This document shows, piece after piece, positions 2,032 through 24,425 of a stretch of DNA of 24,425 nt; position 1 is the stretch's first letter, and each line of letters starts with the position of its first letter. The DNA comes from a virus: positions 1 to 24,425 of IMG/VR virus record IMGVR_UViG_3300009149_000266. One strand, given 5' to 3'. The notes beneath the pieces were generated by a model. The model made no database searches, was not told the origin of the DNA, and saw nothing but the letters and a program-made list of their open reading frames with translations. Position numbers and translations under genes: made by a program.

Positions 2032-4989
2032 CTACAGCAGTGTGCTGGTGCTAGCTGTCCCTGCGGGTTGGCTGAGCGTGAAGACAACGAACTCTGCTGG
2101 TTTGTTCGGGGAGAAACCGATATCGATGTTCACGCGTCCCTGATCGATCGAGGTCTGGCCGTTGTTGTTGGCGTTGCACTTGATGAAGAACGCCTCAGCC
2201 TGAGTCTGACCGAAGAAGTAACCGAGACGGAACAGCGAGCCGTAGTAGCCGTTGAGTGCCGTTTCGATCTTCTGCCACAATTGCGGCCCGTTGTTCTCAA
2301 ACACCGCCCACTGCAGCTGCAGCTTCGTGGTGTACATCAGGAAGATGTGGAGCAACCGAGCATTGATGTAGCGCCAGCGAGGCACCTTCGAGAGCCCACG
2401 CGCTCCGTTGACGATGAAGCCAGTAGCCACGCCGGTCGGAAGCGGGTTGATCCGCGACTGGAAGAGGTTGTCCTGATCTGCCCGAGTGAGGCGGAACTCG
2501 GGCCCAACCGTGCCGGGGGCGTCCAGCGCGCCATCGACAATACCGGCCGGACTCTTACCAACGTTCTTGTTCCGAGCCGTCTTCGCGTAGACACCTGCAG
2601 CGAAACCGCTGGCAGGAATCAGCTCAGGGAGCTCAGTCGAGTCGTTGATGAAGTACACGTTCGGGTAGTAGATGGCCGCATTCGTCGTGTCGAAGGCCTG
2701 GGTCACCAGCACATACTGGATTGCCTCGGGAACCGTGGTTCCGTTTGCGAAGGCGAAGACCGCGTAGCGATCCTGTCTTGCATCGCAGAAGTCCACGATG
2801 TCCGCCTGCACGAAGGCAGAGCCCTCGAAGTCAGGTACAACAAGGTTGACCGGCTCTTCGACCAAGTCGAGGGCGTAGATCCCAGCCTTGGTTCCTTCCA
2901 GGGACGGGTTCGACACGTCGTTTCGAGTGATCACCGTGCCGTCGGACCCCCCAGTCATCTGGAACTGGACCGCCGACGCCAGCTTCGTGTAGACCGCCGT
3001 GATCGGCGTCGCAGCCGGAGGAGGCGTAGCCCACGTGAAGTCCAACGCACCAGTGTTGTAGTCGATCGTGTTCGACCCGTCTGGATCTACGTCACCGACG
3101 ATAGCGCCCAGGCCATTGTCCTGTGCGTATTGCCCGGTGTCGTAGAGAACGTCGATCGTTGAACCAGTGAGAGGCGCAAGCGTAGTGGCCATATCGACCA
3201 GGCCTGTGTCTGCGTTGATCGTGGACGTAGCCGTCACATCGCCGAGCAGGTTACCGGTCGTGTTGGCCCATACGTTACCGAGAGAGACGTAGTCGAGGTA
3301 GAAGAACGTGCCCCCGATTGGGGCCACTGACGTGGTGACCTCAATCGCACCCGAGCCAACCGAGAACGCGGTCTGGCTGTCAACCAGGCCGATCGTGTTG
3401 ATACCTCCACCGTCGACCGAGCCGAGAAGCGGGACATCAACCTCTAGGTTGTTGAAGTAGGCAAGATCGATCGTGCCGGCAGTAATCGGAGTTCCACCAG
3501 CCGTGGTGAATGACCCGGGAACCAGAGCGACACCGGTTACCGGTGCCCCAACCCGGAAGACCCCTCCGACTACGGACAGAATAGTGGCCGTAGAAGCAGC
3601 GGAGTCGGTGACAACGTCACCTGCAACTGCCGGGCCGCCTGTGATACCACTGACCTCAATGGTCTGGACGTTATCCTTAGTGATGACGCCGGACGTCGCG
3701 TGGTTTGCGACCACTGTGGATGAGGCGGCTAGTGCCGCCGTGATCCCGGTCAATGCGCCCGTAGCGTAGTTAATCGTGCCGCCCAGGGGCAAGGATCCAC
3801 TGCCACCAGTCAGCACGCCGGCACCGTCGTCGGTGATGGTTGCCAGGCCGACGCCTTCCACGTTGACGGAGATCGCCAGCGTGCCGGGGTGAACTGGGAA
3901 CGCCGCCAAGGGTGTTGGAGATCCGACCAAGTCATAGACCGCCGGCGTGCCGCCGGTGGTTGACAACGTCTGCGGAGCAGCTGTCGCGCTGGCATACTTC
4001 AGGCTGAAAGCTACAACCTCACGGTGGACCGGGTTATCAATCACACCTGCGTCGAAGGTGAAGGCCTTGTTTGCGCCGTCGATGAGACCCGCACTAGCCG
4101 GCACCACCTCGTTGGTAATCGACCGCCTCTGATAGAAGAGACGGGCCGAGCCCTCGACCACCGGAAGGTTAGTCAGCTGAAGCTCAAAAGCCGTGTTCGT
4201 ACCGTTGATGGCCCCTGTAGTGGGAGCCGTCGGCAAGTGCTTCGTAGTTCCAGAAACGGCGGTCAACGTTAGCGTGTTCGAGAGAACCGGCAGGTTGACC
4301 AGTGTTGCAAGGAATTGCTGCGCCAATGGGGCACCGCCGCCCGTACCGATAGACTCGGACAGAACGTTGACAGGAAGCATCGCCGATGGGGTACCGCCGA
4401 CCCCGATAGACGTCGTAACCAGCAGGCTGGGCCGCCTCGGATCCTGAATCACGTTCAGGAGGTAGTCGGAGGCGGACGGGTCATCGAACTGAATGGCCTC
4501 GTAGGTCTCCACAGCGTCGTCGAAGGCGGGGTTGAAGTCCGCCGGAGCGAGGATTTGGAGATCAAACTTGTCCCACGAGTTCGTGGTGTAGTTGAGGAAG
4601 TTCCTGTTACCACTGACGCGGATCTTGAGGTCGTTGCCCCAGATCCCCTGACCGTTGGCCGTGAACGACCACTTTGCCGGACCCGGAACGTCGTCGACGC
4701 TGACGTCGGCGTAGGTCGAATCGGCTGGAGCAATCCGGTTGACCCAGACGCGCTCACCACCAGTACCGAAGAACGCTCGAACTGTCTGCGGAACCACACC
4801 GCGCGTGTTGACCGGGCCGAAAACCCGGGTGAAATCCTCAACTGAGCGGACCTCGATTGGGAAGTTAGTAGGACCCTTTTGGGTCCAGCCGACAGTGCCC
4901 ATCTTGGCAGGAGAGAACTGATCCGGCGCGCGAGCTGGATCCTTCTCCTCACCGTAGACACCTGCAGACCGATATTGAATGATCGGCAT
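2032..4989 (-). CDS. Contractile tail sheath protein (T4 gp18-like) with large central insertion
   Basis: The 985-aa product forms the contractile cylinder around the tail tube. N-terminal residues 1-190 carry the sheath start (MPIIQYRSAGVYGEE, then GPTNFPIEVRSVEDFTRVFG and FFGTGGERVWVNRI). The C-terminal region, about 675-985, carries the conserved assembly domain (WRYINARLLHIFLMY, WAVFENN, LWQKIETALNGYYGSLFRLG, a late NIDIGFSP, then PAEFVVFTLSQ). Between them about 485 residues rich in G, T, V and A form extra beta-rich domains, with three spaced repeats of a T-I-[NxY/A]-x-TG-hydrophobic pattern at about 405-416, 590-601 and 641-652. T4 gp18 is 659 aa, so the insertion explains the extra length; it is probably displayed on the tail surface. 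The start has GGAG 6 bases upstream of ATG. It follows the 103-aa gene by 3 bases. Confidence 0.93.
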   Translation of the reverse strand: MPIIQYRSAGVYGEEKDPARAPDQFSPAKMGTVGWTQKGPTNFPIEVRSVEDFTRVFGPVNTRGVVPQTVRAFFGTGGERVWVNRIAPADSTYADVSVDDVPGPAKWSFTANGQGIWGNDLKIRVSGNRNFLNYTTNSWDKFDLQILAPADFNPAFDDAVETYEAIQFDDPSASDYLLNVIQDPRRPSLLVTTSIGVGGTPSAMLPVNVLSESIGTGGGAPLAQQFLATLVNLPVLSNTLTLTAVSGTTKHLPTAPTTGAINGTNTAFELQLTNLPVVEGSARLFYQRRSITNEVVPASAGLIDGANKAFTFDAGVIDNPVHREVVAFSLKYASATAAPQTLSTTGGTPAVYDLVGSPTPLAAFPVHPGTLAISVNVEGVGLATITDDGAGVLTGGSGSLPLGGTINYATGALTGITAALAASSTVVANHATSGVITKDNVQTIEVSGITGGPAVAGDVVTDSAASTATILSVVGGVFRVGAPVTGVALVPGSFTTAGGTPITAGTIDLAYFNNLEVDVPLLGSVDGGGINTIGLVDSQTAFSVGSGAIEVTTSVAPIGGTFFYLDYVSLGNVWANTTGNLLGDVTATSTINADTGLVDMATTLAPLTGSTIDVLYDTGQYAQDNGLGAIVGDVDPDGSNTIDYNTGALDFTWATPPPAATPITAVYTKLASAVQFQMTGGSDGTVITRNDVSNPSLEGTKAGIYALDLVEEPVNLVVPDFEGSAFVQADIVDFCDARQDRYAVFAFANGTTVPEAIQYVLVTQAFDTTNAAIYYPNVYFINDSTELPELIPASGFAAGVYAKTARNKNVGKSPAGIVDGALDAPGTVGPEFRLTRADQDNLFQSRINPLPTGVATGFIVNGARGLSKVPRWRYINARLLHIFLMYTTKLQLQWAVFENNGPQLWQKIETALNGYYGSLFRLGYFFGQTQAEAFFIKCNANNNGQTSIDQGRVNIDIGFSPNKPAEFVVFTLSQPAGTASTSTLL

Positions 4990-4992
4990 GGG

Positions 4993-5304
4993 TTACTCCT
5001 GGCCGCCTGTGGGCTTCTTGGTGGACTTCTTTTTGGCCGCCTGAGTGGTGACCTGGAGGGGTGAACGGGGGACCGGAGGAACGATGGCACGACGCTCATT
5101 GGACGCAGCGTCGACCTTGAACTGAGGCACCTCGCGGGGGGTAACCTGCCGGATCAGATTTTGGCGCATCAGCCTTGTGACCGTCGAATTGGTCGGGTGG
5201 GCCTTGAACACAAATCCAGTCGGGTAGCTGACGACGTTCCCATTTGGGAATTCGACAGTCACAGCGCTCCTGGACATGACTTGATAGGTTTGATCACGCT
5301 TCAT
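4993..5304 (-). CDS. Hypothetical virion-block protein, 103 aa
   Basis: Not recognised. The ATG at 5304 overlaps the TGA of the preceding gene (ATGA) and has a strong SD (GGAGG about 6 bases upstream). The N-terminal two thirds look like a small beta-rich domain (VTVEFPNGNVVSYPTGFVF). The last ~25 residues are basic and low-complexity (AAKKKSTKKPTGG), suggesting a flexible nucleic-acid- or partner-binding tail. It is co-expressed directly upstream of the tail sheath, which suggests a tail or neck assembly role; no motif proves it. Confidence 0.7.
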   Translation of the reverse strand: MKRDQTYQVMSRSAVTVEFPNGNVVSYPTGFVFKAHPTNSTVTRLMRQNLIRQVTPREVPQFKVDAASNERRAIVPPVPRSPLQVTTQAAKKKSTKKPTGGQE

Positions 5305-6173
5305 CGTGGCCTCCTTCCGTAGACTCCTGTACGAATAATTGGCCTACCGGTGCCGTAGAGTCCGCCAACACCAGGGTCTGGGTTCTGCACACCACCGGGG
5401 CAGAGTGGGATCCCGTTCTCGTCCGCCGGAACGCGGCCATAGCCGCCCGGTCCAGGAACAAGTTGATAACCGTCTCCACCAGTTCCAGGGAGCGGATCAG
5501 TGGTCTGCGTTCCCGTGAACGAGGGAATGCAAAGAGCCTCGCGGTCCAGCGTCAACTCCCCCTCAACGCGAATGGAGAGGGAATACCCCGGGATACGCTC
5601 CACAAGGGAGCTCACGTCGGTGAGGTCAGTAACGCCCTGCTGGAATGCGGCGTAGGTGCGTGGGTTGTCGAGCCCGTCAACGACTACGATCGTTTCTCCG
5701 CGCATCGGAAACCGCTTCATCATGATCTGCAGCAAGATCTGCGCAACAGTCCGGAAGCGAGCCCAACATTCAATCGTGTAAAAGAAATCGTAGGGCTGTT
5801 CCTTATCCTTCTGCTCATAGCTCGTCCAGCCGAGGCTCCCCCCGACAGAGACCTGCTTCGCGCCGTTGCACGGAACGCGGTAGGAGATGACCGGTGACAA
5901 GAGCCGATCCTCTGCAGGTGTCGTCGAGTCCCGGACGATCGAGATCATGGGAACCGTAGCAGTAACCTGCGTAGGCTCAGGGCGCTTGAAGACCACGAGA
6001 GCCCGATCAATAGGCTCTTGTCGGCCTTCGACTTTGACGAAGATCCCTTCGAGGGGTAGGTAGAACTGATTCTTTGCCTGGTCCGGTAGCGCACCGAGCG
6101 CGGTTGCTACCGCGTCATCGAAGTCGTAGAAATCTACGGACCCCGTGCGTTCTCCGAACTCTAGACCAGCCAC
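5301..6173 (-). CDS. Putative neck/tail-completion virion protein, 290 aa
   Basis: The first gene of the tail cluster on this side of the TnpB-like gene. GTG at 6173 is the start, with GGAG 5 bases upstream (GGAGATAATGTG). Residues 1-210 look globular and alpha/beta, and the ~80-residue C-terminus is rich in Gly and Pro (GTGGDGYQLVPGPGGYG and similar), typical of a flexible virion tail. No signal peptide or membrane segment is seen. In T4-like gene order the interval between portal and sheath genes commonly holds head-completion, neck and tail-terminator proteins, which is the basis for the label; the sequence itself is not recognised. Confidence 0.7.
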   Translation of the reverse strand: MAGLEFGERTGSVDFYDFDDAVATALGALPDQAKNQFYLPLEGIFVKVEGRQEPIDRALVVFKRPEPTQVTATVPMISIVRDSTTPAEDRLLSPVISYRVPCNGAKQVSVGGSLGWTSYEQKDKEQPYDFFYTIECWARFRTVAQILLQIMMKRFPMRGETIVVVDGLDNPRTYAAFQQGVTDLTDVSSLVERIPGYSLSIRVEGELTLDREALCIPSFTGTQTTDPLPGTGGDGYQLVPGPGGYGRVPADENGIPLCPGGVQNPDPGVGGLYGTGRPIIRTGVYGRRPR

Positions 6174-6243
6174 ATTATCTCCAGTCGCATCAGCTAGTGA
6201 TGATAACGGGTGATGCTCTTACCAGTCGAGGGTGTACAGCACT

Positions 6244-6265
6244 ATTAGCTACACGTAAAGCTAAT
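6244..6265. repeat. Inverted repeat (hairpin) upstream of the TnpB-like gene
   Basis: ATTAGCT (6244-6250) and AGCTAAT (6259-6265) form a perfect 7-bp inverted repeat with an 8-base spacer. It is followed immediately by TTGATG (TTGAT at 6265-6269). It lies in the 108-base gap between the divergent starts at 6173 (minus) and 6318 (plus). It could be an operator between divergent genes or a relic of an IS200/IS605-type left-end hairpin. TTGAT is a known target/TAM motif of some elements in that family, but here it lies on the inner side of the hairpin, which is not the expected order. Confidence 0.45.
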
Positions 6266-6281
6266 TGATGCACACTAGAGG

Positions 6282-6311
6282 TTGACCCCGTTAGGGCTCA
6301 GTGCGTATCCT
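6282..6311 (+). promoter_or_regulatory. Predicted sigma70-type promoter for leaderless expression of the TnpB-like gene
   Basis: TTGACC (6282-6287, -35) and TATCCT (6306-6311, -10) are separated by 18 bases. The ATG at 6318 lies 6 bases past the -10, exactly where transcription would begin. No SD is visible before this ATG, so the mRNA is probably leaderless. Its orientation is opposite to the surrounding virion operon, giving the gene its own expression unit. Confidence 0.6.
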
Positions 6312-6317
6312 TGCAGA

Positions 6318-7430
6318 ATGCAGCGCGTGATTCCGATTAAACTCAATGATGACGCAGACTTGCGAGCGACGATTGAGTCCTTCAGACTCATCCAACAGCA
6401 GGTATCTGAGATCGCATTCGCCGCCAATCGGTCGCTCTCCGCAATCGAACTCCACCGCATTGCTTATTCGCAAGTGAAAGGCGTAATCAAGTCCCAGCTC
6501 ACGTGCACCGCGATCCGTACGGTCGCGTCGGAGTATGCACGGCTCAGAAAGCGACGGCGCAGGGCCTATGGGCCCATTCACTTCAGCAAGCCCCGGGCGC
6601 TGTTCCTGATCGGCAAGGCTAAGCGCGACGCACGTCCTCCACGCAGGGATACCATTCAGGTCTGGACCCTAGCTGGCCGCAAGGACATCAACTACACCAT
6701 TCCGGAGCGCTTCGCAGAAACGACCAGTCGCGTCAAATCCTATGATGCGCTCTCGGTAAGCGTCAAACACGGCCGATTGGTCGCCACGCTCTCGGTGACT
6801 CTCAAATCTACTAACCGGAAGGGAACCCTCCCGGCCGGCATCGCAGTCAGCAACAAGAACGAGGTAGCCATCGTTGACGCCGCAGGTAAATCCCTGCGAA
6901 TCGTCACCGTAGCCCAGAACGTAATGGAGGAGACCACCAGAAAAACACGTAAGCGACTAGAGAGGCGTCTGGCCAGTAGGAAGGCAGATGGGCTTGAAAC
7001 ACGTTCTGTGCGACGAGTCCTCAAACGGTTAGGTCGACGGCGCCATATAAGAACCAGAACGTTTAGCCATGCGGCGGCAAACCAACTAGTAAGGTGGGTT
7101 GATGAAGGTTCAATTCTCGTTCTAGAAGACCTTCGCAGGCTCCCACCCTCGCGAAGCTCAAGCCGCTCGGAGACGCGGCCACACTTCTACGAGTCTCTTC
7201 GCAGAAGGATTGAAGAGAAAGCAGAGGCCGCCTCAATCCCGGTCTATTACGTCAGTGTTGCCGGCAATGGGAGGCGGTGTTCGGTGTGCGGCGCGGCCGG
7301 TAAAGCCACCAAACACACCTTCCACTGCGGAACATGTGGGCACGGGGGCCCTCGAAGCAAGAACGCTGCGCTCAACGTAAGGAACAAATTTACGGTCACC
7401 AGGCCGTGGGCTGCTGTTAACCAGCCCTGA
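6318..7430 (+). CDS. TnpB-like (IS200/IS605 OrfB) protein with degraded RuvC active site
   Basis: A 370-aa protein with full TnpB layout: N-terminal WED/REC-like half, arginine-rich bridge helix (RKTRKRLERRLASRK), RuvC and zinc ribbon. TnpB is an RNA-guided nuclease using the omega-RNA made from its own 3' end. Here RuvC-I reads PAGIAVSNK where active proteins have G-[IV]-D, so the Asp is Ala176. RuvC-II keeps Glu270 (VLEDL). RuvC-III reads PRSKNAALN where active proteins have RDxNAAxN, so the Asp is Ser347. The zinc ribbon is intact (C321, C324, C337, C340). Two of three catalytic acids are gone while the frame, ribbon and bridge helix are intact. This is the pattern of TldR-type nuclease-dead repressors. 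ATG 6318 is preferred over TTG 6282, because TTG 6282 forms the -35 box. No TnpA lies nearby. Confidence 0.88.
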   Translation: MQRVIPIKLNDDADLRATIESFRLIQQQVSEIAFAANRSLSAIELHRIAYSQVKGVIKSQLTCTAIRTVASEYARLRKRRRRAYGPIHFSKPRALFLIGKAKRDARPPRRDTIQVWTLAGRKDINYTIPERFAETTSRVKSYDALSVSVKHGRLVATLSVTLKSTNRKGTLPAGIAVSNKNEVAIVDAAGKSLRIVTVAQNVMEETTRKTRKRLERRLASRKADGLETRSVRRVLKRLGRRRHIRTRTFSHAAANQLVRWVDEGSILVLEDLRRLPPSRSSSRSETRPHFYESLRRRIEEKAEAASIPVYYVSVAGNGRRCSVCGAAGKATKHTFHCGTCGHGGPRSKNAALNVRNKFTVTRPWAAVNQP

Positions 7431-7448
7431 AGCTCGCCATCGGGCAAG

Positions 7449-7478
7449 CGGCCTCGGCCGTAGTTGACGAAAAGCTAC
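7449..7478. repeat. Two adjacent hairpins just downstream of the TnpB-like gene
   Basis: CGGC-CTCG-GCCG at 7449-7460 forms a compact 4-bp GC stem. It abuts GTAGTT...AGCTAC at 7460-7478 (6 pairs including one G-T wobble, 7-base loop), and the two share base 7460. The second contains the TAG stop of the converging minus-strand gene. They may act as a bidirectional terminator. They also sit where the 3' part of a TnpB guide-RNA scaffold would be expected on the plus strand. The right hairpin shares AAAGCTA with the left inverted repeat at 6244-6265. Confidence 0.4.
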
Positions 7479-8173
7479 CTCTTCTGATACCAGCGCGACG
7501 CAAAGACGTTCTCGCCGCGTTTAAGGACCGCCTCGCGGCCCGCCACGATCTTCCCCTCGGCACTGATCCGGGTCCAGATAGGCGTGCGGGGAAATCCTCC
7601 CAGACCATATTCCAGCCGCTTTGCAAGGAAGGGGACGTCGGCCTTGATCTTCCCGTTGATCTTCGGAAGCGTAGCGTCGAACGGAAGGACCGGAACCCCG
7701 TGTAGCTGGACCTTCTCTTTGACCTTGGTCAGGTCATTCAGTCGACTCCGACGGAAAGTGGTGACCTCAGAGGGCGACGCGGGCCGCACGAGAAGGTCAG
7801 CAGTGAGACCACCCTTGACCGACGGAATGGTATCCCACGTCCACGGATTGTGCTGAGAGAGGACCCTCGCAACGTCGTCGCTGCCTGAGATCCAGACAAG
7901 GCTGCTTTCCGCAGAGACAGAGGCCGGAGAGATCTCGGTGACCACCGTTGTGAGCTCGTAGTGCGACTCGCTGATCTTGATGACTTTGATGGAGTCCCGA
8001 TAAACGTCGTACCAACCACCCTTGTCCGGGATCATGTCCTGGATTCGACCTCGAAGCTGCTCCGCGAGCTCTTTTAGGGCCGCGTTTCCAGCCTCTTGGG
8101 CCGCCTCGGGAATACTCGACTTTAGACCCTCGACGTCTCTGCGAATCTGAGCATCGTCGATCGTAATGCGCAT
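7475..8173 (-). CDS. Putative head-tail joining / tail-completion protein, 232 aa
   Basis: Follows the portal gene by 4 bases. ATG 8173 (MRITIDDAQI) is chosen over an in-frame upstream start at 8200 because it sits just after the portal stop, with AGG from CGCAGGTAG serving as SD. The N-terminal helix (about 10-55, ending IQDMIPDKGG), then a beta-rich middle and a basic C-terminus, loosely resemble HK97 gp10-like neck/tail-completion proteins, which often begin with a long helix containing a conserved Ala/Leu-rich stretch. That family placement is inference. No membrane or signal segment. Its TAG stop lies within the hairpin shared with the converging TnpB-like gene. Confidence 0.7.
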   Translation of the reverse strand: MRITIDDAQIRRDVEGLKSSIPEAAQEAGNAALKELAEQLRGRIQDMIPDKGGWYDVYRDSIKVIKISESHYELTTVVTEISPASVSAESSLVWISGSDDVARVLSQHNPWTWDTIPSVKGGLTADLLVRPASPSEVTTFRRSRLNDLTKVKEKVQLHGVPVLPFDATLPKINGKIKADVPFLAKRLEYGLGGFPRTPIWTRISAEGKIVAGREAVLKRGENVFASRWYQKR

Positions 8174-8177
8174 GGGG

Positions 8178-11100
8178 CTACCTGCGGTGGCCGCGTCCAA
8201 CAGGTGGGGTAATGAGCTTACCGTTGTTGTTACGAGACATGTAGGTGCTCTTGAACTCGCGGATGAAGGATTCGTGTTGGTGCATCGTTGAGGCGATCAC
8301 CTTGCTCTGCGACTTCACCTCCTTCTGGAGATCCTGAATCTCTTGGTCACGACGACGCGATTCCTGGTCACGTCGCTCCTCAAGCCGTCGGACCGCGTCG
8401 TATCGCTTCCACTCGGTCGCAGTGTTCGGACGGCCGCCTACTCCAGGAGGCGGCCCGATCTCCACGTTGCCTGGGTGCTGAAGGCCACCTTCGTGCGGCA
8501 TGTCCCCGAGGGGTGACGGACTACCATCGCCCCCACCGCCTCCGCCAGCGTCACCCATTAGCTTCTGCTGCTCAGCCTCGCGCTTCATGTCTTCCTCACG
8601 CTCCTTCTGAATCTTCTCGATCTCGTCCTCACTGAGCTTGAGGACGCGCTCCTGGATATAGCGCATGGACACAAAGGGCTGAACGCGGGTAGCGAAGTCC
8701 GCTCGGGCGTTCTTGATCTCGTTGTGCGCCAACTCGTAGATGCCGCTCGGGACGGTCATCATGACCTGGAGGTCATTCTGGAACGGATTGATACCACGAG
8801 CTGCGAGGTCGATCATGATCAACCTCCGGATCATGTTCTTCATCTCGCGTTGGATGCCCATAGTCACACGGGCCGCTCGCACGTCCTCAAAAGAGAGGAT
8901 CGACCGGGCGGGAACAGCGTCGTCCTGTCCCAAGTAGCTACGAGGAACCTTCAGTACGCCGTGAAGCTTCCGCTGAAAGTACTCAACGTCTTCCGTTGCT
9001 TGATAGTCCGGTCCCTGGAGGACCTCAACACGCGCCAGTTCACGGTTCTCACGGACAGCGATGAAGAAATCCTGCATGTTGTCCATGGGATTCATGCGCA
9101 TATCGAGGCGCTGAGTGTTATGGACAAAGACACCGGCTGTGAGACCGAAGTTGTGATACTTCTCGACTGTAAGATCGTAGACGTCCTCAAATCCGTCAGG
9201 CGTAACGCTCACAACCGTATGGTTGAGCTTCGCGGCACCGACTAAACGACGTTGCTTATTCTTCTGAGGTCCATTCTTCCTCGAAGAGATACCGACTACT
9301 CGCTCTTTGAATTCGGCGAAGCTTTTGAATCCGCGTCGTTTAAGAAGTGCGGTCCAGCACCCACGACTCATGGAGACATTGATCGTTGTAGAGATCGATG
9401 CGTAGACACGGGCGAAGTCCTCTTGTCCGTTTAGCCACGCAACCATGTCCTGGGATGTAATGGTTGGGTCGTTGTGAAGCTTCTGCTCAACCATCGCGAA
9501 GATGAGGTTGTATTGCTCATCGGCCCGCTCAGTCTTAGTTGCAGACGCTTTTCGATTTGCGTCGCTGAGACCCTCAGGGTTCTCCGCTCTCCAACTACGA
9601 ATTCGCTCGTAGAGCTCTTTCTTGAACACCGGATCAGTCTGAGCTCGTTCTTTAAGCGCCTTTCTAGCAGCCTGAAGGTGGACGGGGTGTCGACCCCCAG
9701 CGTGCTCACCGGGGGTGAGCAGCTCTAGATTCGACGGGTGATTGTTTTCCTTGTTTTCATCCTTGTGATGGACGTGCAGCCCCTTTGACTTGTAGTCCGG
9801 GTCGAGCAGCTCTTCGGCAACCATCTGATGCGCGTAGCGCACCTTGCCCATGCCGGTGTCCTTGAGTGACCAATACCATTGCTTTCCCTTACTCCCTCGG
9901 GACAGGTAAAGCGGCATCAACGACTCCCCGCGACCTAGATCTTGGGTTTGCTTGTAGGTGCCATTACGAAGCAAGAATGGGTGATCTCCGGTGCAGCGGA
10001 CAATGGCCCCGCTGTCAAGCACCACCCTGAAGACTGCCTTTTTCTTACCGGACAGTGCGGCGCCAACAATCTTGCCTGGTACAACACGGTTTCGCTCTAC
10101 GTCGTAGGAAAACACGTAATGGTGCTTCCCCTCAGCTGCAAGTTTCGGAACCTCTTCCGCGAGCTCACGCATAGAGCGGTCCTTACCGTCCAAGCACGTG
10201 ACCGGTGTTTCCCCTGTGAGGCATCTCGGGTTGACCATCTTCTGTTTGCGCAGGTCCTGCTTGGTCTTCCGGAGGAAGGAGTCGACCTTATCCGAAGGAA
10301 TGTCGGTGACGTCGATGTAGAAGGCAAAGCGTGCAGGCGCTCTTGTGTTATGCACCACCACACCATCGGCAATAAAGTTGTGCTCTTCGGCCTCAACGCC
10401 AATGTCCCATACGTCCTCGATATTCTCCTGCTCAACGCTGAGAATTGGCTCAATGTCAAAGCCGCTGTCCGGACGGTGCGGCGCAACGAGATGGTGAACC
10501 CCGGGAATGAGGTTTTGGACCTCGACATACTCCAGCGAGTCGCCGCTAACGTGAGTCAGGACAGGGTGCGTCCGATTCGCGTGCAACTCAAAACGCTTAC
10601 TCTTGATCCCGTAGAGTTGGTCTGGGCCATTGTTCTTCTTATAGACAACGCGAGTTTGGTGCAGGCGACCATCGTGCCCGAATGAGTAGACCTCGTCGCC
10701 CTCTTCAAGGTCTTTAATGGCCTTGTGGCCGCCGGGAGTCCAGATCTGCGAGTCGCCACGAAGGCACAACTTGTAGATCAGCATCGCGTCTTCAAGCAAA
10801 ACCAGACGCTTCCAGATCCAGCGAGCTCCGTCGGCGACGCCATAGCCATAGGGGCAACGACGGACAGTTCCCCGCAGGCGCGAGTGAAGGATCTGCCATT
10901 CCTCGAACAAAGCTACGTGGTCGGGAATCTTCGTTTGCCCTGCAAGCATGCCGCGAAGGTCGGCCGCGTCCTGTGTAAACTTGCCGGTAATGTCCTGGAC
11001 ATAGCCGATGATCGCACCGTTGGACTGCTCAACCCGACGCATGGTGGGACATGGCAATGAGTTGAGACCTACTACACCGTTCTCGGTGACCAAGACCTCT

Positions 11101-11978
11101 TCGTAGTTGTTTCCCATCTTCACGGTCGAATAGACTATGCTCCAGATGTCGTCCTCGATCCTCAACCGCTTATTGAGGAGAAAGTCGGTCATGTCCTTAA
11201 TGGCTTCGTCGGTCGAGGTGACCCAGACGGTCTTGCCCGTATCAATGTCTGGCTGCGTTGCGTCGTTTGTGAAGTAGTGGTGGGCGCTGTTATGGACGAC
11301 AATGCCGTTGGCAATGAAGTTGTGGGTCTTCGTCGTAACGTCGTAGACGTCCTCTTGGCCGGCCGGCGTAGCAGCCTGCGTAACAGAAAGCGTACCGGTG
11401 ATCGGGTGAAGGAAGGTGCTCATTCCCTTCGTGTCGAACCCGGCCCACATTGAGACGACGGCCGTCCCCTCAATTAGGTCAGACGCATTGATGTAGTCGT
11501 GCTCAACGGTGAGAAACTTGTGGTTCGAGGTGCACTTGATCTTTTCGCCGTTACTGAAACCAACCTCTACAACGTCCTGCTTGTTACCGGTGACCCTTGG
11601 ATTTCCGGCCGGAACCTTGATAAGGCGCTGCTTCTCGGCGTCGTAGGCGAGGATCTCAACGCCGCCCCCATGGGCGGCCAAGTCGTGGAGGCGGAAGGGC
11701 TTGATGATCGAACCCTCGACAACGTAGACCAGCGTATCCGCAGTCAAACAGTTGATGTCGGGGTAGTCGTCCATCTGCTCATAATCCGCATACCTGTCCA
11801 TCAGGTTCTGCGAAACAGAGAGGAGACCGCCTACGTCCTCGCGTCCCCAGACTGAGAAAATCGAGGACGGGAGATGCTTCTCGGCCTCAGCCGAGGGCGA
11901 TTCAGCCCGATCTCGTTCTGCGCGCTCTCGTCCAAATACCTGTCGCAGATAGTTGAGCGCATCGTCCCGAAGTGCCAT
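8178..11978 (-). CDS. Portal vertex protein (T4 gp20-like) containing three inteins
   Basis: The 1266-aa precursor would splice to about 603 aa (T4 gp20 is 524 aa). Exteins are residues 1-76, 231-404, 545-585 and 955-1266. They carry portal hallmarks: VWVTSTDEAIKDMTDFLLN, TRAPARFAFYIDV (the conserved RAPxRxxFYID element), DFFIAVRENR...VEVLQGPDY, then DVEYFQRKLHGVLKVPRSYL. The C-terminus has a charged coiled coil (about 1115-1140), a Gly-rich linker and a second coiled coil (about 1188-1245). The ring of 12 portal subunits forms the DNA entry channel and terminase docking site. Inteins lie at C77-N230, C405-N544 and C586-N954, each followed by Ser or Thr as +1 nucleophile. Virion assembly therefore depends on three splicing events. 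Confidence 0.94.
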   Translation of the reverse strand: MALRDDALNYLRQVFGRERAERDRAESPSAEAEKHLPSSIFSVWGREDVGGLLSVSQNLMDRYADYEQMDDYPDINCLTADTLVYVVEGSIIKPFRLHDLAAHGGGVEILAYDAEKQRLIKVPAGNPRVTGNKQDVVEVGFSNGEKIKCTSNHKFLTVEHDYINASDLIEGTAVVSMWAGFDTKGMSTFLHPITGTLSVTQAATPAGQEDVYDVTTKTHNFIANGIVVHNSAHHYFTNDATQPDIDTGKTVWVTSTDEAIKDMTDFLLNKRLRIEDDIWSIVYSTVKMGNNYEEVLVTENGVVGLNSLPCPTMRRVEQSNGAIIGYVQDITGKFTQDAADLRGMLAGQTKIPDHVALFEEWQILHSRLRGTVRRCPYGYGVADGARWIWKRLVLLEDAMLIYKLCLRGDSQIWTPGGHKAIKDLEEGDEVYSFGHDGRLHQTRVVYKKNNGPDQLYGIKSKRFELHANRTHPVLTHVSGDSLEYVEVQNLIPGVHHLVAPHRPDSGFDIEPILSVEQENIEDVWDIGVEAEEHNFIADGVVVHNTRAPARFAFYIDVTDIPSDKVDSFLRKTKQDLRKQKMVNPRCLTGETPVTCLDGKDRSMRELAEEVPKLAAEGKHHYVFSYDVERNRVVPGKIVGAALSGKKKAVFRVVLDSGAIVRCTGDHPFLLRNGTYKQTQDLGRGESLMPLYLSRGSKGKQWYWSLKDTGMGKVRYAHQMVAEELLDPDYKSKGLHVHHKDENKENNHPSNLELLTPGEHAGGRHPVHLQAARKALKERAQTDPVFKKELYERIRSWRAENPEGLSDANRKASATKTERADEQYNLIFAMVEQKLHNDPTITSQDMVAWLNGQEDFARVYASISTTINVSMSRGCWTALLKRRGFKSFAEFKERVVGISSRKNGPQKNKQRRLVGAAKLNHTVVSVTPDGFEDVYDLTVEKYHNFGLTAGVFVHNTQRLDMRMNPMDNMQDFFIAVRENRELARVEVLQGPDYQATEDVEYFQRKLHGVLKVPRSYLGQDDAVPARSILSFEDVRAARVTMGIQREMKNMIRRLIMIDLAARGINPFQNDLQVMMTVPSGIYELAHNEIKNARADFATRVQPFVSMRYIQERVLKLSEDEIEKIQKEREEDMKREAEQQKLMGDAGGGGGGDGSPSPLGDMPHEGGLQHPGNVEIGPPPGVGGRPNTATEWKRYDAVRRLEERRDQESRRRDQEIQDLQKEVKSQSKVIASTMHQHESFIREFKSTYMSRNNNGKLITPPVGRGHRR
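9117..10223 (-). mobile_element. Portal intein 3, full-length with HNH endonuclease (369 aa)
   Basis: Precursor residues C586-N954. Block A starts CLTGETPVTCLDG. Block B is RCTGDHPFLL (T663, H666). An HNH homing domain spans about 715-770 with GLHVHHKDENKENNHPSNLE as its core. It is followed by a helical, possibly DNA-binding region (about 775-905). Blocks F/G read DVYDLTVEKYHNFGLTAG then VFVHN, followed by Thr955. All splicing and HNH residues look intact, so it may still be mobile. It sits only 41 extein residues downstream of intein 2. Confidence 0.92.
10347..10766 (-). other. Portal intein 2, mini-intein (140 aa, no endonuclease)
   Basis: Precursor residues C405-N544. Block A starts CLRGDSQIWTPGG. 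Block B is HANRTHPVL, with Asn468 at the position usually held by Thr and His471 retained. Blocks F/G read VWDIGVEAEEHNFIADG then VVVHN, followed by Thr545. It interrupts the portal directly before TRAPARFAFYID, one of the most conserved portal elements, a typical site for inteins. No endonuclease domain is present. Confidence 0.9.
11289..11750 (-). other. Portal intein 1, mini-intein (154 aa, no endonuclease)
   Basis: Precursor residues C77-N230. Block A starts CLTADTLVYVV. Block B has CTSNHKF (T150, H153). Blocks F/G read DVYDVTTKTHNFIANG then VVHN, followed by Ser231. All splicing residues (Cys1, TxxH, His-Asn, Ser+1) are present, so splicing is expected. Size and absence of an HNH or LAGLIDADG motif make it a mini-intein that has lost, or never had, an endonuclease. 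The flanking exteins rejoin as DDYPDIN-SAHHYFTND, a conserved N-terminal portal segment. Confidence 0.92.
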
Positions 11979-12019: not shown

Positions 12020-12748
12020 TCAGGCTGGAAGCTCCAGGAACACACCGGATACTGATACGGAGCCCCCAGATTTGACCGATGCGGTATAAACAGACTCCAA
12101 TCGACCGGGGGTAACGCGCTTCACTTTATGATTCGTCTTGCGGGCAGACTCAGCAATCTTCGCTATCCGAGGTGAGGCGCTGGCGCACTCGTCAAGGAAC
12201 TGCTGCGCCTGTCGACACGCCCTAACGAGTTTATGCTTGTGGGTCCGTTTGACTGATCTCATGTTCGGCGTTATGCGTAGGTTGTCCGGATGATAGTTCT
12301 TCCGGTTGGTGTCGATGTGCTCAACGACGGTACCCCTTGCGAGTGGAAAACCCTGCTTCCATTCCGCCATAAGTCTATAGATTTTCCGCTTTGCGCCCTT
12401 TCCTGGAATCTGGTATGTCGGGTACCCGTAGAAATCAGACCCCAAATAAAGTGGCAGCAAGGAATCTCCAGGCTTGAGTTCCGGGGCCAACTTGTAGCGA
12501 CCGGATTTCATGGTGAAACGCGATGAGGCCGACACTTGAATGACGGAATCATCGTCGAGCTCAACCTCAAACACCTGCTCAGTCCCTATAGATCGGACAT
12601 CGCTGATCTCTGATACGAACAGACGTGCCCCAGTCCAAACAAGCGCCACTTCTGTGGTCTTTGGGCTTGAGACTGTCCGATCGTATAAATCTGCGATTTT
12701 CACCGGACCGGAGGCCAATCGGAGAAGCATCTCACCGTGGAGTCCCAC
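12020..12748 (-). CDS. Free-standing Hint-HNH protein: splicing-dead intein relic
   Basis: A 242-aa protein with intein order but broken splicing residues. A block-A-like start GLHGEMLLRLASGPVKIADL has Gly where Cys1 should be. The block-B region reads VIQVSASSRFTM, with Arg in place of the essential His. SLLPLYLGSD matches the same region of portal intein 3 (SLMPLYLSRG). The HNH is intact (VVEHIDTNRKNYHPDNLRIT, H144, D146, N156). The block F/G equivalent ends SVSGVFLELPA, without His-Asn. Excision is therefore not expected, but endonuclease activity may remain. GTG 12748 is the start, with AGGGGG 5 bases upstream. It lies in the same reading frame as the upstream gene, separated only by its TAG and three codons, so the two may once have been one protein. 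Confidence 0.8.
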   Translation of the reverse strand: MGLHGEMLLRLASGPVKIADLYDRTVSSPKTTEVALVWTGARLFVSEISDVRSIGTEQVFEVELDDDSVIQVSASSRFTMKSGRYKLAPELKPGDSLLPLYLGSDFYGYPTYQIPGKGAKRKIYRLMAEWKQGFPLARGTVVEHIDTNRKNYHPDNLRITPNMRSVKRTHKHKLVRACRQAQQFLDECASASPRIAKIAESARKTNHKVKRVTPGRLESVYTASVKSGGSVSVSGVFLELPA

Positions 12749-12757
12749 AGAAACCCC

Positions 12758-14038
12758 CTACCGTCCGGCCAATAGAAGGGGCTCCCTGTCAAGCGCCGCC
12801 TCGGGTACCGCCCGGAACGTTTGCTCAATTCCGACCGAGTCAATTACGGTCAATCCACGAGCACTAACGATTCGGTGAAACGGGGTTGTTCCGATAAGCG
12901 ATCGAGCCGTCCCCTTCTTCATGTATGCCAGAGTTAGGTGAGGGATGTAGCTAGGATGCGTCTGCGGCCGCGAATTAGGGAGCTTCCCGATTGCCTTGTG
13001 CAGCTGAACAAGCGCGTCACTTACGAGTTCGATGTAGAGAACGTCATGGTCCTCCTGCTCGAAGACGTTAAGGGCCCCGAGTGAGACTCTGATAGGTCTG
13101 CCGTGCTCTTCGACGACCTGTCGGATAGCGTCCAAATCACGCTTATCGGCCCCGTAATAGACCGTTGCGTGCGGCCGGTGCTCCATTTTGAGGATGTCGT
13201 CCTCTGAAACATGCTTCGCAATCCAACGAGGTAGTGTGATTCTCAGGTAGCCAAAGTCGACCTGGGTCTGCAAGAACAGCTCGTCTTGCTGCTGACGCTC
13301 AAACAGAAGGTCCTCAGAGAGCTTTCCCTCGCCGCCCTTGTTCCTAAGCGGGTCAATCATGTAGAGGAAGACTTTGCGAACCATCGACCCAGAGCCTCGC
13401 ATTTCGCGGCCCGCGTGGCCGCGCCCCAAAAGCATATTTGCGGCCACCTCAGAAAAAGCCTCCGATGGGTCAGCGCTGGCGTAGGTGCTCGGGAATGAGC
13501 TCGACACGCGCTGGGTCTTCAACCAGAGCTTGAAGAGCCCGAGATCGTCACCGAAGTGCTTGTTGAAATAGAACCAAAGACTCGACTTCTCTGGCTGTTT
13601 CTCGACAACACGGGCTAGTCCCTTCGCCGCAGCGTCGTCGAACGGCTTGCCGGAAGCGTTACAGAACGTCTCCCAGACCTCTTTAGCACCGTCATCAATA
13701 TGCTTGACCCAGACCCGGTGCATCACCTCGTGGATGATTGTCCAGAGAAAGTCTTGAGCCCCTCTCAGTGGGGGATTAAAGATCCGAACCTTGTCGGTCT
13801 TGGGAAGGTAGCGACCGTTAGCCTCTTCCCCCGCTTCGCGTTGAACGATTTCGATGTGTCCACCAAAGTCTTCGTCCGAAAGTCCGAACTCGCGCATTTT
13901 CTCGACAGCGATGTAGATCGCGTTCAAAAAATCACCGACGGCCTCAGGCGGCACAGACCCGTCAGACACCGGTCGGAGGGGTCCCGGTCGATGTGCCCTT
14001 GGGTGTAACAATCTGAAGGCCGCGATGACGCGTTGCAT
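12758..14038 (-). CDS. Zincin-type metallopeptidase fused to a 2H phosphoesterase domain
   Basis: A 426-aa two-domain protein. The N-terminal domain (about 30-240) contains TIIHEVMHRVW, an HExxH zinc site (H103, E104, H107), and a later EAFSEVAANML (E193/E197), which could supply the third ligand. The C-terminal domain (about 255-415) has paired H-x-T motifs, HRPHATVYYG (H290, T292) and YIPHLTLAYM (H367, T369). These define the 2H phosphoesterase/LigT fold, which acts on 2',3'-cyclic or 2'-5' phosphodiester bonds and includes the anti-CBASS nuclease Acb1. The gene begins at ATG 14038, overlapping the previous TAA by one base, and lies in the block leading to the portal gene. Possible roles are an ejected virion protein, a maturation protease, or an anti-defence factor. 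Domain calls are firm; the fused role is unknown. Confidence 0.82.
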   Translation of the reverse strand: MQRVIAAFRLLHPRAHRPGPLRPVSDGSVPPEAVGDFLNAIYIAVEKMREFGLSDEDFGGHIEIVQREAGEEANGRYLPKTDKVRIFNPPLRGAQDFLWTIIHEVMHRVWVKHIDDGAKEVWETFCNASGKPFDDAAAKGLARVVEKQPEKSSLWFYFNKHFGDDLGLFKLWLKTQRVSSSFPSTYASADPSEAFSEVAANMLLGRGHAGREMRGSGSMVRKVFLYMIDPLRNKGGEGKLSEDLLFERQQQDELFLQTQVDFGYLRITLPRWIAKHVSEDDILKMEHRPHATVYYGADKRDLDAIRQVVEEHGRPIRVSLGALNVFEQEDHDVLYIELVSDALVQLHKAIGKLPNSRPQTHPSYIPHLTLAYMKKGTARSLIGTTPFHRIVSARGLTVIDSVGIEQTFRAVPEAALDREPLLLAGR

Positions 14039-20768: not shown

Positions 20769-23700
20769 TTAGTGAAGTTCATCCCAGGTCCTCCCAGAAC
20801 GAGCGTCGGCCACGAAAGGCACCTTCATACCCCTTGCAACCCCTTCCATGCTATCCTTAACCAGTTGACAAAGTTCCTCTTTAATCACTTGTGGAGCCTC
20901 AAATATCAGCTCATCATGGACTTGGATCATGAAGCGGAACTTGCGCCACAACGCGGCCACGGCTGGCGTGGAGTTCGCGATCATCCTGTTTCGGGTCTCG
21001 TAAAGCCTTATCATCGCTAGCTTTATGAGATCCTGGCAGCTCCCGCTAACCCTAAATTGAATTGCTTGAGTGCCGGCCCGGTAGTCGTTCTTCCGCCACT
21101 CAATGTCGAGCCGCCGGCGACGGCGCGCAATGTTGTAGGCGATGTAGTTATCGGAGACCAGCTGATGAAGCGTCCGCTCGTGCCACGCAGCAATGCCCGG
21201 GTAGGCTTCATGCCACTTGGAGATCAGCTCCTGACCGTAGTCCAGACGGGCCTCGCCGTTGGCGTCAAAGAGACCAGCGTAGATGCAGAACTTCGGAGAG
21301 CCCATGCGGTAGAGCAGTCCAAAATTTTGAGCTTTTGCCAGCTGACGCGCTACACCAACGTCCTCGGCGGTTCGCTGGTGAAGGTCAACGTGACGACACC
21401 GCTTTTGGTGCTCGAACTGATCAGGGTTGGCCTCACCACACCCTACGCATTTCGGCCCATTAGGGGTAATCACCGGAGGAGCCTTTTTATGGCAAGAGAA
21501 GCACTCGTAGAAGGTGAAGCGCTCACACGGGCCGCCGTTTTCTCCCGCGATGCAGCCCCCTGAAATTGAGAACACCTCGATCATGTTCCGCTCGTTGGCG
21601 AGGTGGGCCGCCATGCGCAGCTCCATTTGACTTTGGCCGCTGATCAACCCATTCTCTAGGACATACGTGTGTGTCCCTTCGACGGTGATCTGCCACACCT
21701 CTTTTACGCCCACAGGTTCAATGGAAATGATTCGATGATTACCTACAACTAGCTGCGCCCTCAATCTCCAGCACTCGCGACCGCAGTACTTGGCGGTCTT
21801 CCGTGAGGACTCAAACACCTCCCTACACCTAGCACACTTCGATGAGTAGGTAGTTTCCCCGCGAGATCGGTTTGAACAGGAAGTGCCACAGAACCGCGCG
21901 CTCTTCTTGGTTGGCAAGAAGTTAGTTCCGCAGACCTCACAGTTAATCTCTGTGAGTTTGTTGGCGGTAAAGCACTCACGAGAGCAAAACCGGGATCTCT
22001 TTCCATCACTTCTGTAAAATGGAAGATCGCAGCGTTCGCAGATTAGCTCACAACCATTCTCGCGTGACTTGTGATAACACTCTCTGCTGCAATACTTACT
22101 GTCAGCAGATGGTGGTCGGTAGAATTCCCCGCCGCACGAGAGGCACTCGGTAATGGTCCCCTTCAGCTTTCCGAAGTTCGGGTTCCCATCGTCCTTATAG
22201 GATCGACGGTTCTTCTGTTGCCCCTCTATTAGAGCCCTGGTTTTGGCGGTTCTATGCTTTTCCGTTGCGATTGCCCACCATCTTCTCGCCCCTTGACCAC
22301 GATTCTCGTCAGACGGTAGCCACCTCAGGTTTGTCCGAGAGTTGTCGTCGACATCAGCGTTGATGTGATCAACATCGTGCGCTGGGGGCCTCGGGCTGTG
22401 AAAGTGCTCCGCCAACACGATGTGTTGGAAAGCTGTTGTTCCCTTTATCCTCCACGTCTTGTAACGACCAAGCCTATCGGAGATGACGTGCGCAAGCCTA
22501 TCCCCAGGATTCAAATACTTCGTCTCTACAAGACGGCCCCCGTAGGTCATCCATTTGTGGTCTTCAGTGCAGACCACCTCACTACCGTCTTCAAGGGTGA
22601 CCTTTACGCAGGGCGCTTTACCCACGCATCCACCGGCTACAACCGGCCTGATCTCAAGGGATTTCCCATCTGCCGATGACAATACAGCAGGCATTCGAGC
22701 CGCGACTTCCTCAATTGGCATGACCCCATCGACGGTAACAATCGGGGTTCCTGCAACCAGGCAGTAATCAGCGTCGATCAGGCAGAGCTGGCTGCGCTCC
22801 TCGTCGTAGTCGTCCTCCAGGTGGGCGCAGAAGGCCTTGCGGATCAGGTCCTTGTCCCTGGGCTGGTTCATCAGGTTGACGGGGTCCGCACTGGAGTTGT
22901 GTACGCAAATCTCGCCAGCAATGAAATTGTGGGTTCCTTCGATCTCCAGGTCGTAAACATCAACAGTCTGGTACAACGTCTCAATGCGGACGATGGTGTG
23001 GTTGCCGGGGACGAAGCCCACCCGAGCCATCGTCTCCTTGAGTTTGTAATAGTTCATCCCGTAGCGGACACAGAGCTGCTTCTGACTGCCGCACTCGTCA
23101 AACTTCTCCTCTAGCCACTCCTCGGTGATCTCGGCGTAGGGGGGATGCTTGTCGCTCTCCGGAGGACCCGCGAACTTGCCATCTGCCCACGCCTGGCGCA
23201 TTTGCTCGCGGTGCTTCTCTCTGCGCTCCGGGTCCTCCCAACACGCGTTGAGCTTGTCGGCCGCAATTTCTTTCTCCGCGTCGGAGAGGTTCTCCCACTG
23301 CGCCTTACCGTGCGCAGACTGATGATCGGTCCTGGTTTGAGGCTCTAGGTTCTCCAGCAGGTTATTGAGCTTGTTTTCATCCCTGTGGTGGATGACATAG
23401 CCCTCCGGAATCGGTCCGACAAGCTGTTCGTAGATAAATCGATGTTCAAATCGAAATCGACCAGCGCCCGTGGCATAAAGATCCGAGTAACCCTCATCAT
23501 CCTCCCGCCGAGACAGGGCAAGGACGCGGTCTTTGGGTAGGAGATCTGCGGCCGGACGATAGGTCCCATCAGTCAGTCTTACGGGGTGGTCTGGAGTTAG
23601 ATCCACATAGCCATGGGTAACCGTTCCGTTGCCGTGCTTCCGCCAGTGAACACGAGCTACCGTCTTGTGCCCAGTCTTCCATGACTTGATAACTGGCCGC

Positions 23701-24425
23701 AAAGTTAGGTTGAGATCGTCGTCGTAGGTATAGGCCAGATCTCCCGGTCTCACGTCTTCGATCGGGATTCCCTTGGGGTATTTACTAACGTCGCGGACCA
23801 CCTCGATGGGGGTTCCCTGGGCGACGCAAAGTCTACCTATAACCGTGCCAGTCTGCCTGAACCTGGCGAAAACGCGGCCGTCCTCTTGGGCAAGCTTGAT
23901 CAGCTTCTGGCAGAAGGAGCTTTCGATGACGCCTAGGGATCGATACTTCAGCATCTTTCCGACGAGAGGGAACTGCTCCTTCCGGTGCGAGATCGCCTTG
24001 TCGCCAGTCGCATACTGCTCAAGGTCCTCGTTGTATTCCACGTTCTTAGTCGGAAGCCCAAGGCCCCCCTTGTCTGCGGGCTTGTAGAGAAAGTCAGAGA
24101 CCTGCTTCGGAGACCGCAGGTTCGGAAGCCAGCCGACCTTGGCTTTGAACTCTTCCTCAATTTCCTTCTTCTGACGTTGCAGCCGATCCTGGACGGTGAC
24201 CAACCACTCCCAGTCAATGAAACAGCCGGTGAGCTCCATCTCCATCAAGATCCGCTGGATCTTCATTTCGATCTTCCAGAAGATCTTCTCCAAGTCGGAG
24301 TAGACCCCCGGTGTGTCGTCTAGCGGAGAGCACCAATCGTCCTTGTGCTGCTTCGGTGGGTCCTGGGCCCGGATAGAGTCCATGGCCCACTTCCACAGCC
24401 GATACGTCCAAGCCGTGTCATCACA
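20769..24425 (-). CDS. Family A DNA polymerase containing two inteins, N-terminus beyond the window
   Basis: The frame remains open to the right edge, reading CDDTAWTYRLWKWAMDS, the end of a 3'-5' exonuclease domain, so the true start lies outside. Residue numbers here count from the internal Met at 24383. The polymerase domain has GTVIGRL/SSADPVNLMNQP, motif A DADY/SQMELRMAAHL (split at Y540), motif B RQLAKAQNFGLLYRMG (1013-1028) and motif C VHDELIFEAP (D1157, E1158). Slashes mark intein sites: C186-N496 and C541-Q917. Removing both leaves about 530 visible residues. A Cys-rich insert (about 944-996, seven Cys) sits between motifs A and B, where usual family A enzymes have a short loop before [DI]HxRTA. 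It replicates phage DNA; both inteins must splice for activity. Confidence 0.95.
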   Translation of the reverse strand, partial: CDDTAWTYRLWKWAMDSIRAQDPPKQHKDDWCSPLDDTPGVYSDLEKIFWKIEMKIQRILMEMELTGCFIDWEWLVTVQDRLQRQKKEIEEEFKAKVGWLPNLRSPKQVSDFLYKPADKGGLGLPTKNVEYNEDLEQYATGDKAISHRKEQFPLVGKMLKYRSLGVIESSFCQKLIKLAQEDGRVFARFRQTGTVIGRLCVAQGTPIEVVRDVSKYPKGIPIEDVRPGDLAYTYDDDLNLTLRPVIKSWKTGHKTVARVHWRKHGNGTVTHGYVDLTPDHPVRLTDGTYRPAADLLPKDRVLALSRREDDEGYSDLYATGAGRFRFEHRFIYEQLVGPIPEGYVIHHRDENKLNNLLENLEPQTRTDHQSAHGKAQWENLSDAEKEIAADKLNACWEDPERREKHREQMRQAWADGKFAGPPESDKHPPYAEITEEWLEEKFDECGSQKQLCVRYGMNYYKLKETMARVGFVPGNHTIVRIETLYQTVDVYDLEIEGTHNFIAGEICVHNSSADPVNLMNQPRDKDLIRKAFCAHLEDDYDEERSQLCLIDADYCLVAGTPIVTVDGVMPIEEVAARMPAVLSSADGKSLEIRPVVAGGCVGKAPCVKVTLEDGSEVVCTEDHKWMTYGGRLVETKYLNPGDRLAHVISDRLGRYKTWRIKGTTAFQHIVLAEHFHSPRPPAHDVDHINADVDDNSRTNLRWLPSDENRGQGARRWWAIATEKHRTAKTRALIEGQQKNRRSYKDDGNPNFGKLKGTITECLSCGGEFYRPPSADSKYCSRECYHKSRENGCELICERCDLPFYRSDGKRSRFCSRECFTANKLTEINCEVCGTNFLPTKKSARFCGTSCSNRSRGETTYSSKCARCREVFESSRKTAKYCGRECWRLRAQLVVGNHRIISIEPVGVKEVWQITVEGTHTYVLENGLISGQSQMELRMAAHLANERNMIEVFSISGGCIAGENGGPCERFTFYECFSCHKKAPPVITPNGPKCVGCGEANPDQFEHQKRCRHVDLHQRTAEDVGVARQLAKAQNFGLLYRMGSPKFCIYAGLFDANGEARLDYGQELISKWHEAYPGIAAWHERTLHQLVSDNYIAYNIARRRRRLDIEWRKNDYRAGTQAIQFRVSGSCQDLIKLAMIRLYETRNRMIANSTPAVAALWRKFRFMIQVHDELIFEAPQVIKEELCQLVKDSMEGVARGMKVPFVADARSGRTWDELH
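21633..22763 (-). mobile_element. DNA polymerase motif-A intein B: HNH plus four zinc fingers, Gln C-terminus (377 aa)
   Basis: Residues C541-Q917. Block A starts CLVAGTPIVTVDG; block B is VVCTEDHKWM (T606, H609); the HNH core is DVDHINADVDDNSRTNLRWL. Four tandem C-x2-C...C-x3-C fingers follow, at about 747-769, 782-804, 815-836 and 850-871. The end reads EVWQITVEGTHTYVLENG then LISGQ, followed by Ser918 of SQMELR. The usual His-Asn is replaced by Gly-Gln. Inteins with C-terminal Gln are known and some splice. It lies between Tyr and Ser of motif A. Confidence 0.9.
22896..23828 (-). mobile_element. DNA polymerase intein A with HNH endonuclease (311 aa)
   Basis: Residues C186-N496 of the visible precursor. 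Block A starts CVAQGTPIEVV. Block B is LTPDHPVRL (T263, H266). The HNH core is YVIHHRDENKLNNLLENLEP (about 329-348), followed by a helical/HTH-like region. Blocks F/G read DVYDLEIEGTHNFIAGEICVHN in two adjoining pieces, then Ser497. It interrupts the conserved T-G-R-L-S-S-x-D-P element of family A polymerases between L and S. All splicing residues are present. Confidence 0.93.

What the first reader, a model, noticed from the sequence alone, without database searches (positions are those of the whole stretch)
6318..7430. Nuclease-dead TnpB homologue kept intact by a phage: candidate RNA-guided repressor
Eye alignment to active TnpB shows RuvC-I Asp replaced by Ala176 (PAGIAVSNK) and RuvC-III Asp replaced by Ser347 (PRSKNAALN). 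RuvC-II Glu270, the arginine-rich bridge helix and all four zinc-ribbon cysteines remain. Loss of catalytic acids with preservation of everything needed for RNA and DNA binding matches TldR proteins, which repress promoters without cutting. There is no TnpA, and the gene sits inside a virion operon on the opposite strand. It could silence a host gene, a competing phage, or a phage promoter using a guide transcribed from its 3' flank.
Basis: partly seen in the sequence, partly recalled or inferred. Interest (0 to 1): 0.88.

Follow-up and report, generated by a model that had tools for sequence, protein, structure and literature searches.

The report
Nuclease-dead TnpB with a fixed guide
A family of large tailed phages carries a small CRISPR-like protein that has lost its DNA-cutting residues but has kept its guide RNA, whose first letters are the same in all five divergent phages found, so it probably silences one specific gene, still unidentified, without cutting it.

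Summary
ORF 6318-7430 (+) is a full-length TnpB with RuvC acids replaced (Ala176, Glu270 kept, Ser347). Four further distinct phages carry it at the same place between tail genes (69-76% identity), all Ala/Ser-Glu-Ser, all open, dN/dS about 0.1: an old, maintained, nuclease-dead lineage, not decay. DED-intact relatives were found only at about 40% identity (a phage and Chloroflexota genomes). They define the ancestor: TAM CCAT, and an omegaRNA scaffold ending in GTTGAC, after which the guide starts. The dead phages keep that scaffold (stems plus pseudoknot with compensatory changes; a covariance model built from them alone finds the active ones). The transposon left end is gone, no TnpA was found, and the ORF sits just behind a promoter-like sequence divergent from the tail operon. 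No target was found in the phages' own contigs, so a host or rival-phage target is inferred, and so is repression. It works like a TldR, in phages with no integrase found. RNA, binding and target are untested.

The parts
6318..7430 (+). nuclease-dead TnpB homologue (TldR-like), 370 aa
6843..6845 (+). codon of Ala176, at the RuvC-I catalytic Asp position (Ala in four phages, Ser in the fifth)
7125..7127 (+). codon of Glu270, RuvC-II Glu, kept in all
7356..7358 (+). codon of Ser347, at the RuvC-III catalytic Asp position (Ser in all five phages)
7278..7337 (+). zinc ribbon with Cys321, 324, 337, 340, all invariant
6282..6311 (+). promoter-like TTGACC-N18-TATCCT ending 6 nt before the ATG (possible leaderless start); the TTGACC and the 20 nt before it almost invariant in five phages
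6200..6229 (-). divergent promoter-like sequence reading toward the tail gene 5301-6173, inside a conserved intergenic block
7383..7468 (+). omegaRNA scaffold overlapping the 3' end of the gene: hairpin 7392-7407, stem 1 7408-7413/7422-7427, hairpin 7432-7445, stem 4 7448-7461
7416..7421 (+). 5' strand of the pseudoknot (GTTAAC in the stem 1 loop), pairs with 7463-7468
   Evidence: architecture as in PMC10097598
7463..7468 (+). 3' strand of the pseudoknot (GTTGAC), end of the scaffold
7469..7484 (+). predicted guide (16 nt shown): G-AAAAGCTA-CCTCTTC
   Evidence: boundary from active relatives
7470..7477 (+). invariant guide core AAAAGCTA (guide nt 2-9), overlapping the stop codon of the gene on the other strand
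7475..8200 (-). tail/neck gene whose 3' end overlaps the guide (neighbour, not part of the system)
5301..6173 (-). virion-operon gene on the other side (neighbour); same synteny in the relatives

Best explanation
It is a domesticated, nuclease-dead TnpB that works as a single-target RNA-guided DNA-binding repressor. The gene is probably transcribed from its own promoter, divergent to the tail operon. The 3' end of the transcript folds into an omegaRNA (stems plus pseudoknot ending at 7468) that the protein binds, exposing a guide that starts G-AAAAGCUA. The complex scans DNA next to a CCAT-like TAM, opens a short R-loop over the guide core and, having no catalytic Asp, stays bound and blocks transcription. 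Because the guide core is unchanged in all five phages and no matching TAM-flanked site was found in their own contigs, the target is most likely a conserved site in the host or in a competing element. Shown here by sequence: loss of the acids, kept fold (predicted), kept scaffold, guide boundary in relatives, invariant guide core, loss of mobility parts. Inferred: expression, RNA binding, DNA binding, repression, host target.
For: RuvC D-E-D replaced by A/S-E-S in five distinct phages, against D-E-D in the active relatives. dN/dS about 0.1 with dS above 1.1. Full Cas12f/TnpB fold. Scaffold: cross-family stem 1 and pseudoknot, 8 of 12 pairs changed on both sides, 99.4% of cells paired, 0 of 500 shuffles reach this covariation score; a covariance model built only from the dead phages finds active bacterial omegaRNAs at E 4e-9 to 3e-3. 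Guide boundary: in the active relatives sequence diverges right after GTTGAC and an empty site reads CCAT followed by that guide. Octamer AAAAGCTA invariant in five phages while 8 of 88 fourfold sites of the gene are (p^8 5e-9; 6e-6 if the three stop-codon bases are left out). One omegaRNA per phage contig, no TnpA match, no left-end hairpin. Precedent: phage TldR represses host fliC; a 6-nt seed suffices (PMC13418256).
Against: No target was found: AAAAGCTA elsewhere occurs at chance rate and no CCAT-N-AAAAGCTA occurs in the phage contigs; the host is unknown. No partner gene like fliC is adjacent. No RNA data. The TAM is inferred from relatives about 40% identical and may have changed; it rests mainly on one clean empty site. 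The octamer could have another role (for instance AGCU could pair with AGCU in the scaffold).
Confidence: 0.63

Rival explanations
1. The dead protein is a dominant-negative antagonist of active TnpBs of the same family: it soaks up their omegaRNAs or shields target sites, protecting the phage from cutting by mobile elements.
For: The scaffold has stayed close to that of the active family, and an active relative sits in the tail region of another phage.
Against: This does not need a fixed guide of its own, yet the guide core is invariant. The DED-intact relatives known are only about 40% identical and none was found in the same phages.
Confidence: 0.1
2. It regulates the phage's own genes: the complex binds near its own divergent promoter or elsewhere in the phage genome, timing late genes.
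For: It lies next to a divergent, conserved promoter-like block of the tail operon; G001 has a 13-nt partial match to its guide at 4984.
Against: No conserved AAAAGCTA site with the family TAM in any phage contig; extra exact matches are at chance level and lie in unrelated contexts; the G001 site lies inside a helicase-like ORF with guide nt 2 mismatched and no CCAT. Several contigs are fragments.
Confidence: 0.12
3. The protein is kept for a job without a DNA target, such as binding and stabilising its own mRNA or making an antisense transcript into the tail gene 7475-8200.
For: The guide overlaps the 3' end of the opposite gene, so any read-through is antisense to it.
Against: The invariant octamer lies mostly outside that gene, and in L004 wholly outside it, and the full DNA-binding fold is kept.
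Confidence: 0.1
4. It is a decaying transposon relic with no function.
For: Loss of catalytic residues and of the transposon left end.
Against: Five open reading frames, dN/dS about 0.1, fixed synteny, compensatory changes in the RNA.
Confidence: 0.03

Closest known systems
TldR, TnpB-like nuclease-dead repressors (fliC-associated clade of Enterobacter prophages; csrA-associated clade; PMC13418256, citing Wiegand et al. 2024)
   Same: TnpB descendant with inactivated RuvC, own omegaRNA and guide at the 3' end, phage-borne in one clade, stable locus outside a transposon
   Different: Groups apart from its DED-intact relatives in the Chloroflexota-type family (about 40% identity; not compared with known TldR sequences), TAM probably CCAT, sits antisense in the virion operon of large myophages with no integrase found, no partner gene such as fliC or csrA next to it, target unknown, guide core fixed across divergent phages
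Active TnpB of IS200/IS605-type elements, here the Thermogemmatispora/Ktedonobacterales/L029 relatives
   Same: Domain order, bridge helix, zinc ribbon, omegaRNA scaffold with the same stem 1, pseudoknot and GTTGAC end
   Different: They keep D-E-D, several have a left-end hairpin after CCAT, and guides that differ from copy to copy; the window's gene has none of these
Cas12f and natural DNA-binding-only Cas12 effectors (Cas12m, PMC11013384; dCas12f structures 9n9c, 9n9m)
   Same: Same fold; binding without cutting as a way to block a target
   Different: No repeat array near the gene; single guide encoded at the 3' end of the gene

Membership tests
TldR (nuclease-dead TnpB repressor) | TnpB homologue with RuvC catalytic acids lost | tested here: met
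   A/S176, E270, S347 in five phages; DED in relatives
TldR (nuclease-dead TnpB repressor) | omegaRNA scaffold and guide encoded at the 3' end of the gene | tested here: met
   covariation and cross-family covariance-model hits; by sequence only, no RNA data
TldR (nuclease-dead TnpB repressor) | Domesticated: no TnpA, transposon end lost, fixed position | tested here: met
TldR (nuclease-dead TnpB repressor) | Guide matches a genomic target next to a TAM | tested here: inconclusive
   none in the phage contigs; host unknown
TldR (nuclease-dead TnpB repressor) | RNA-guided binding and transcriptional repression | not testable with these tools
   needs RIP-seq, ChIP-seq, reporter
TldR (nuclease-dead TnpB repressor) | Association with a non-transposon partner gene (fliC, csrA) | tested here: inconclusive
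   always between the same tail genes, but these are virion genes without an obvious regulatory link
Active TnpB nuclease | RuvC D-E-D catalytic triad | tested here: not met
Cas12f CRISPR effector | CRISPR array beside the gene | tested here: not met
   no repeat array in 5000-9000

The most novel reading that the evidence does not exclude
Large, probably lytic myophages use a one-guide RNA-guided repressor, derived separately from known TldRs, whose 8-nt guide core has been held constant across divergent phages because it hits a conserved site near a start codon of a host or rival gene (CCAT reads ATGG on the other strand), as part of host takeover or phage competition rather than lysogenic conversion.
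Probability: 0.35. Interest if true: 0.82.

Novelty: new variant of a known kind. Interest (0 to 1): 0.64.

Why it matters
TldRs are known from prophages and commensals with a visible partner gene. This would extend RNA-guided repression to large myophages, from what looks like a separate line of inactivation, and shows a natural guide under purifying selection. The predicted scaffold, TAM and guide core are precise enough to be tested directly, and the DED-intact relatives give a before/after pair for how a nuclease becomes a regulator.

Tried and rejected
First took the invariant ...AAAAGCTA as scaffold and searched the following sequence as guide: no self-target. Active relatives then moved the boundary to GTTGAC. 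Neighbour-gene scan for an empty site in related phages: all neighbours with enough sequence carry the gene, so none was found; the scan with the 241-aa tail protein gave nothing. Conserved AAAGCTACCA in an intergenic region of G002 and G005 looked like a target but is shared DNA without CCAT, not found in W or G001. A rival long-range RNA fold (the free-energy minimum) has no pair with changes on both sides and 94.6% of cells paired. First AlphaFold model with 6 sequences was poor in RuvC; 16 sequences fixed it. The covariance model did not find the L029 omegaRNAs, whose stems differ more. Rfam: no hit. Codons 225-240 looked conserved in DNA but not convincingly (p 0.03). No relatives of P0001 in the phage or plasmid records by tblastn. 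The main TldR and TnpB-diversity papers are not in the library.

Full report
What is there. The window is a 24.4-kb IMG/VR viral record of a large myophage: tail sheath (phrog_23), portal (phrog_213) and DNA polymerase (phrog_17) are recognised, the last two carrying intein/HNH-like insertions. On the + strand, against the virion operon, 6318-7430 encodes a 370-aa TnpB homologue.

The active site. Against DED-intact relatives the RuvC-I Asp column holds Ala176, RuvC-II Glu270 is kept, and the RuvC-III Asp column holds Ser347; four zinc cysteines are kept. AlphaFold2 with 16 relatives gives pLDDT 84.5 and a full-length match to Cas12f (Z 21.6) and ISDra2 TnpB (Z 18.3).

Not a relic. Contigs L002, L003, L004 (same sequence in L005) and L016 (same in L015, L017) carry the gene at the same place, 69-76% identical, with Ala/Ser-Glu-Ser in each. 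All are open; among the four compared (W, L002, L003, L004) dN/dS is about 0.1 at dS above 1.1. The dead clade is monophyletic against the active relatives (100/100; midpoint root, known TldR sequences not included). DED-intact relatives are about 40% identical to the window's protein: one phage (L029, two copies in its tail region) and Chloroflexota and other genomes.

The guide RNA. DNA from about 7383 to 7477 is nearly invariant although the third positions of the gene are saturated. Within the five phages every pair of the proposed structure is kept, three with changes on both sides, one of them in the pseudoknot (only five sequences, 19 of 500 shuffles as high). Across the family, stem 1 and pseudoknot have 8 of 12 pairs changed on both sides and exceed every shuffle in covariation score. 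A covariance model made from the dead phages alone finds the active bacterial omegaRNAs. The plan, with a pseudoknot between the stem 1 loop and the bases just before the guide, is that of ISDra2 (PMC10097598).

Where the guide starts. In active copies the scaffold ends GTTGAC (ACTGAC or ACTGAT in L077 and L029) and then each copy differs. An empty site in Thermogemmatispora reads CCAT followed directly by the guide of the filled site; a second reads CCAC, and several other left ends follow CCAT. So TAM CCAT and guide from the base after GTTGAC: in the window 7469 onward, G-AAAAGCTA-CCTCTTC.

The fixed guide. Nucleotides 2-9, AAAAGCTA, are the same in all five phages, while guide nt 1 and the bases after nt 9 vary. 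Only 8 of 88 fourfold sites of the gene are invariant, so the octamer is under selection. In four phages its last three bases are the stop codon of the opposite gene; in the fifth (L004) that gene ends further on. Within this set the guide no longer behaves like that of a mobile element, whose guide is whatever lies next to it.

Target. No CCAT-N-AAAAGCTA in the window or in the related contigs, including 203 kb and 134 kb ones; other AAAAGCTA are at chance level. A host or competitor target is therefore inferred, not shown. No tyrosine integrase or large serine recombinase was found, so lysogenic conversion is less likely than for the Enterobacter TldR phages, with the caution that contigs may be incomplete.

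Expression. A promoter-like TTGACC-N18-TATCCT ends 6 nt before the ATG, and a divergent one faces the tail gene; the TTGACC and the 20 nt before it are nearly invariant in five phages. Function of these is inferred from sequence.

Verdict. Works like a TldR; membership is met on residues, guide RNA and domestication, open on target and repression. New variant of a known kind.

Noticed in passing
L029 (IMGVR_UViG_3300031449_000004), copies at 3-851 and 1642-2922: Two TnpB copies with intact catalytic residues (the first cut by the contig end), 81% alike in DNA, flank a small gene next to a sheath-like gene of another phage, both antisense to the virion genes; they could act as RNA-guided homing endonucleases.
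   Followed up: partly
window 8178-11978 and 20769-24383: Portal and DNA polymerase genes carry large HNH/intein-like insertions; in the relative L004 the portal reads as a shorter ORF and the homology skips residues about 405-955, so the insertions vary within the family.
   Followed up: no
window 12020-12748 (-): ORF that looks intein-like beside 12758-14038, possibly another split or inserted intein.
   Followed up: no
G002 44449-44030 and G005 2361-2697 (L075): About 230 bp of conserved, apparently partly non-coding DNA beyond the sheath gene in two phages (80% identity), not found in the window; G002 has a 40-bp insertion in it.
   Followed up: partly
G001 (L038) 4984: 13-nt match to the G001 guide (first A of AAAAGCTA mismatched, next 13 nt matched) inside a helicase-like ORF, no CCAT; unlikely for a single test but found among many comparisons, so probably chance.
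   Followed up: partly
Thermogemmatispora loci L091, L093, L095: Upstream of these TnpB copies lies a shared coding-like stretch; perhaps a passenger gene of the element.
   Followed up: no
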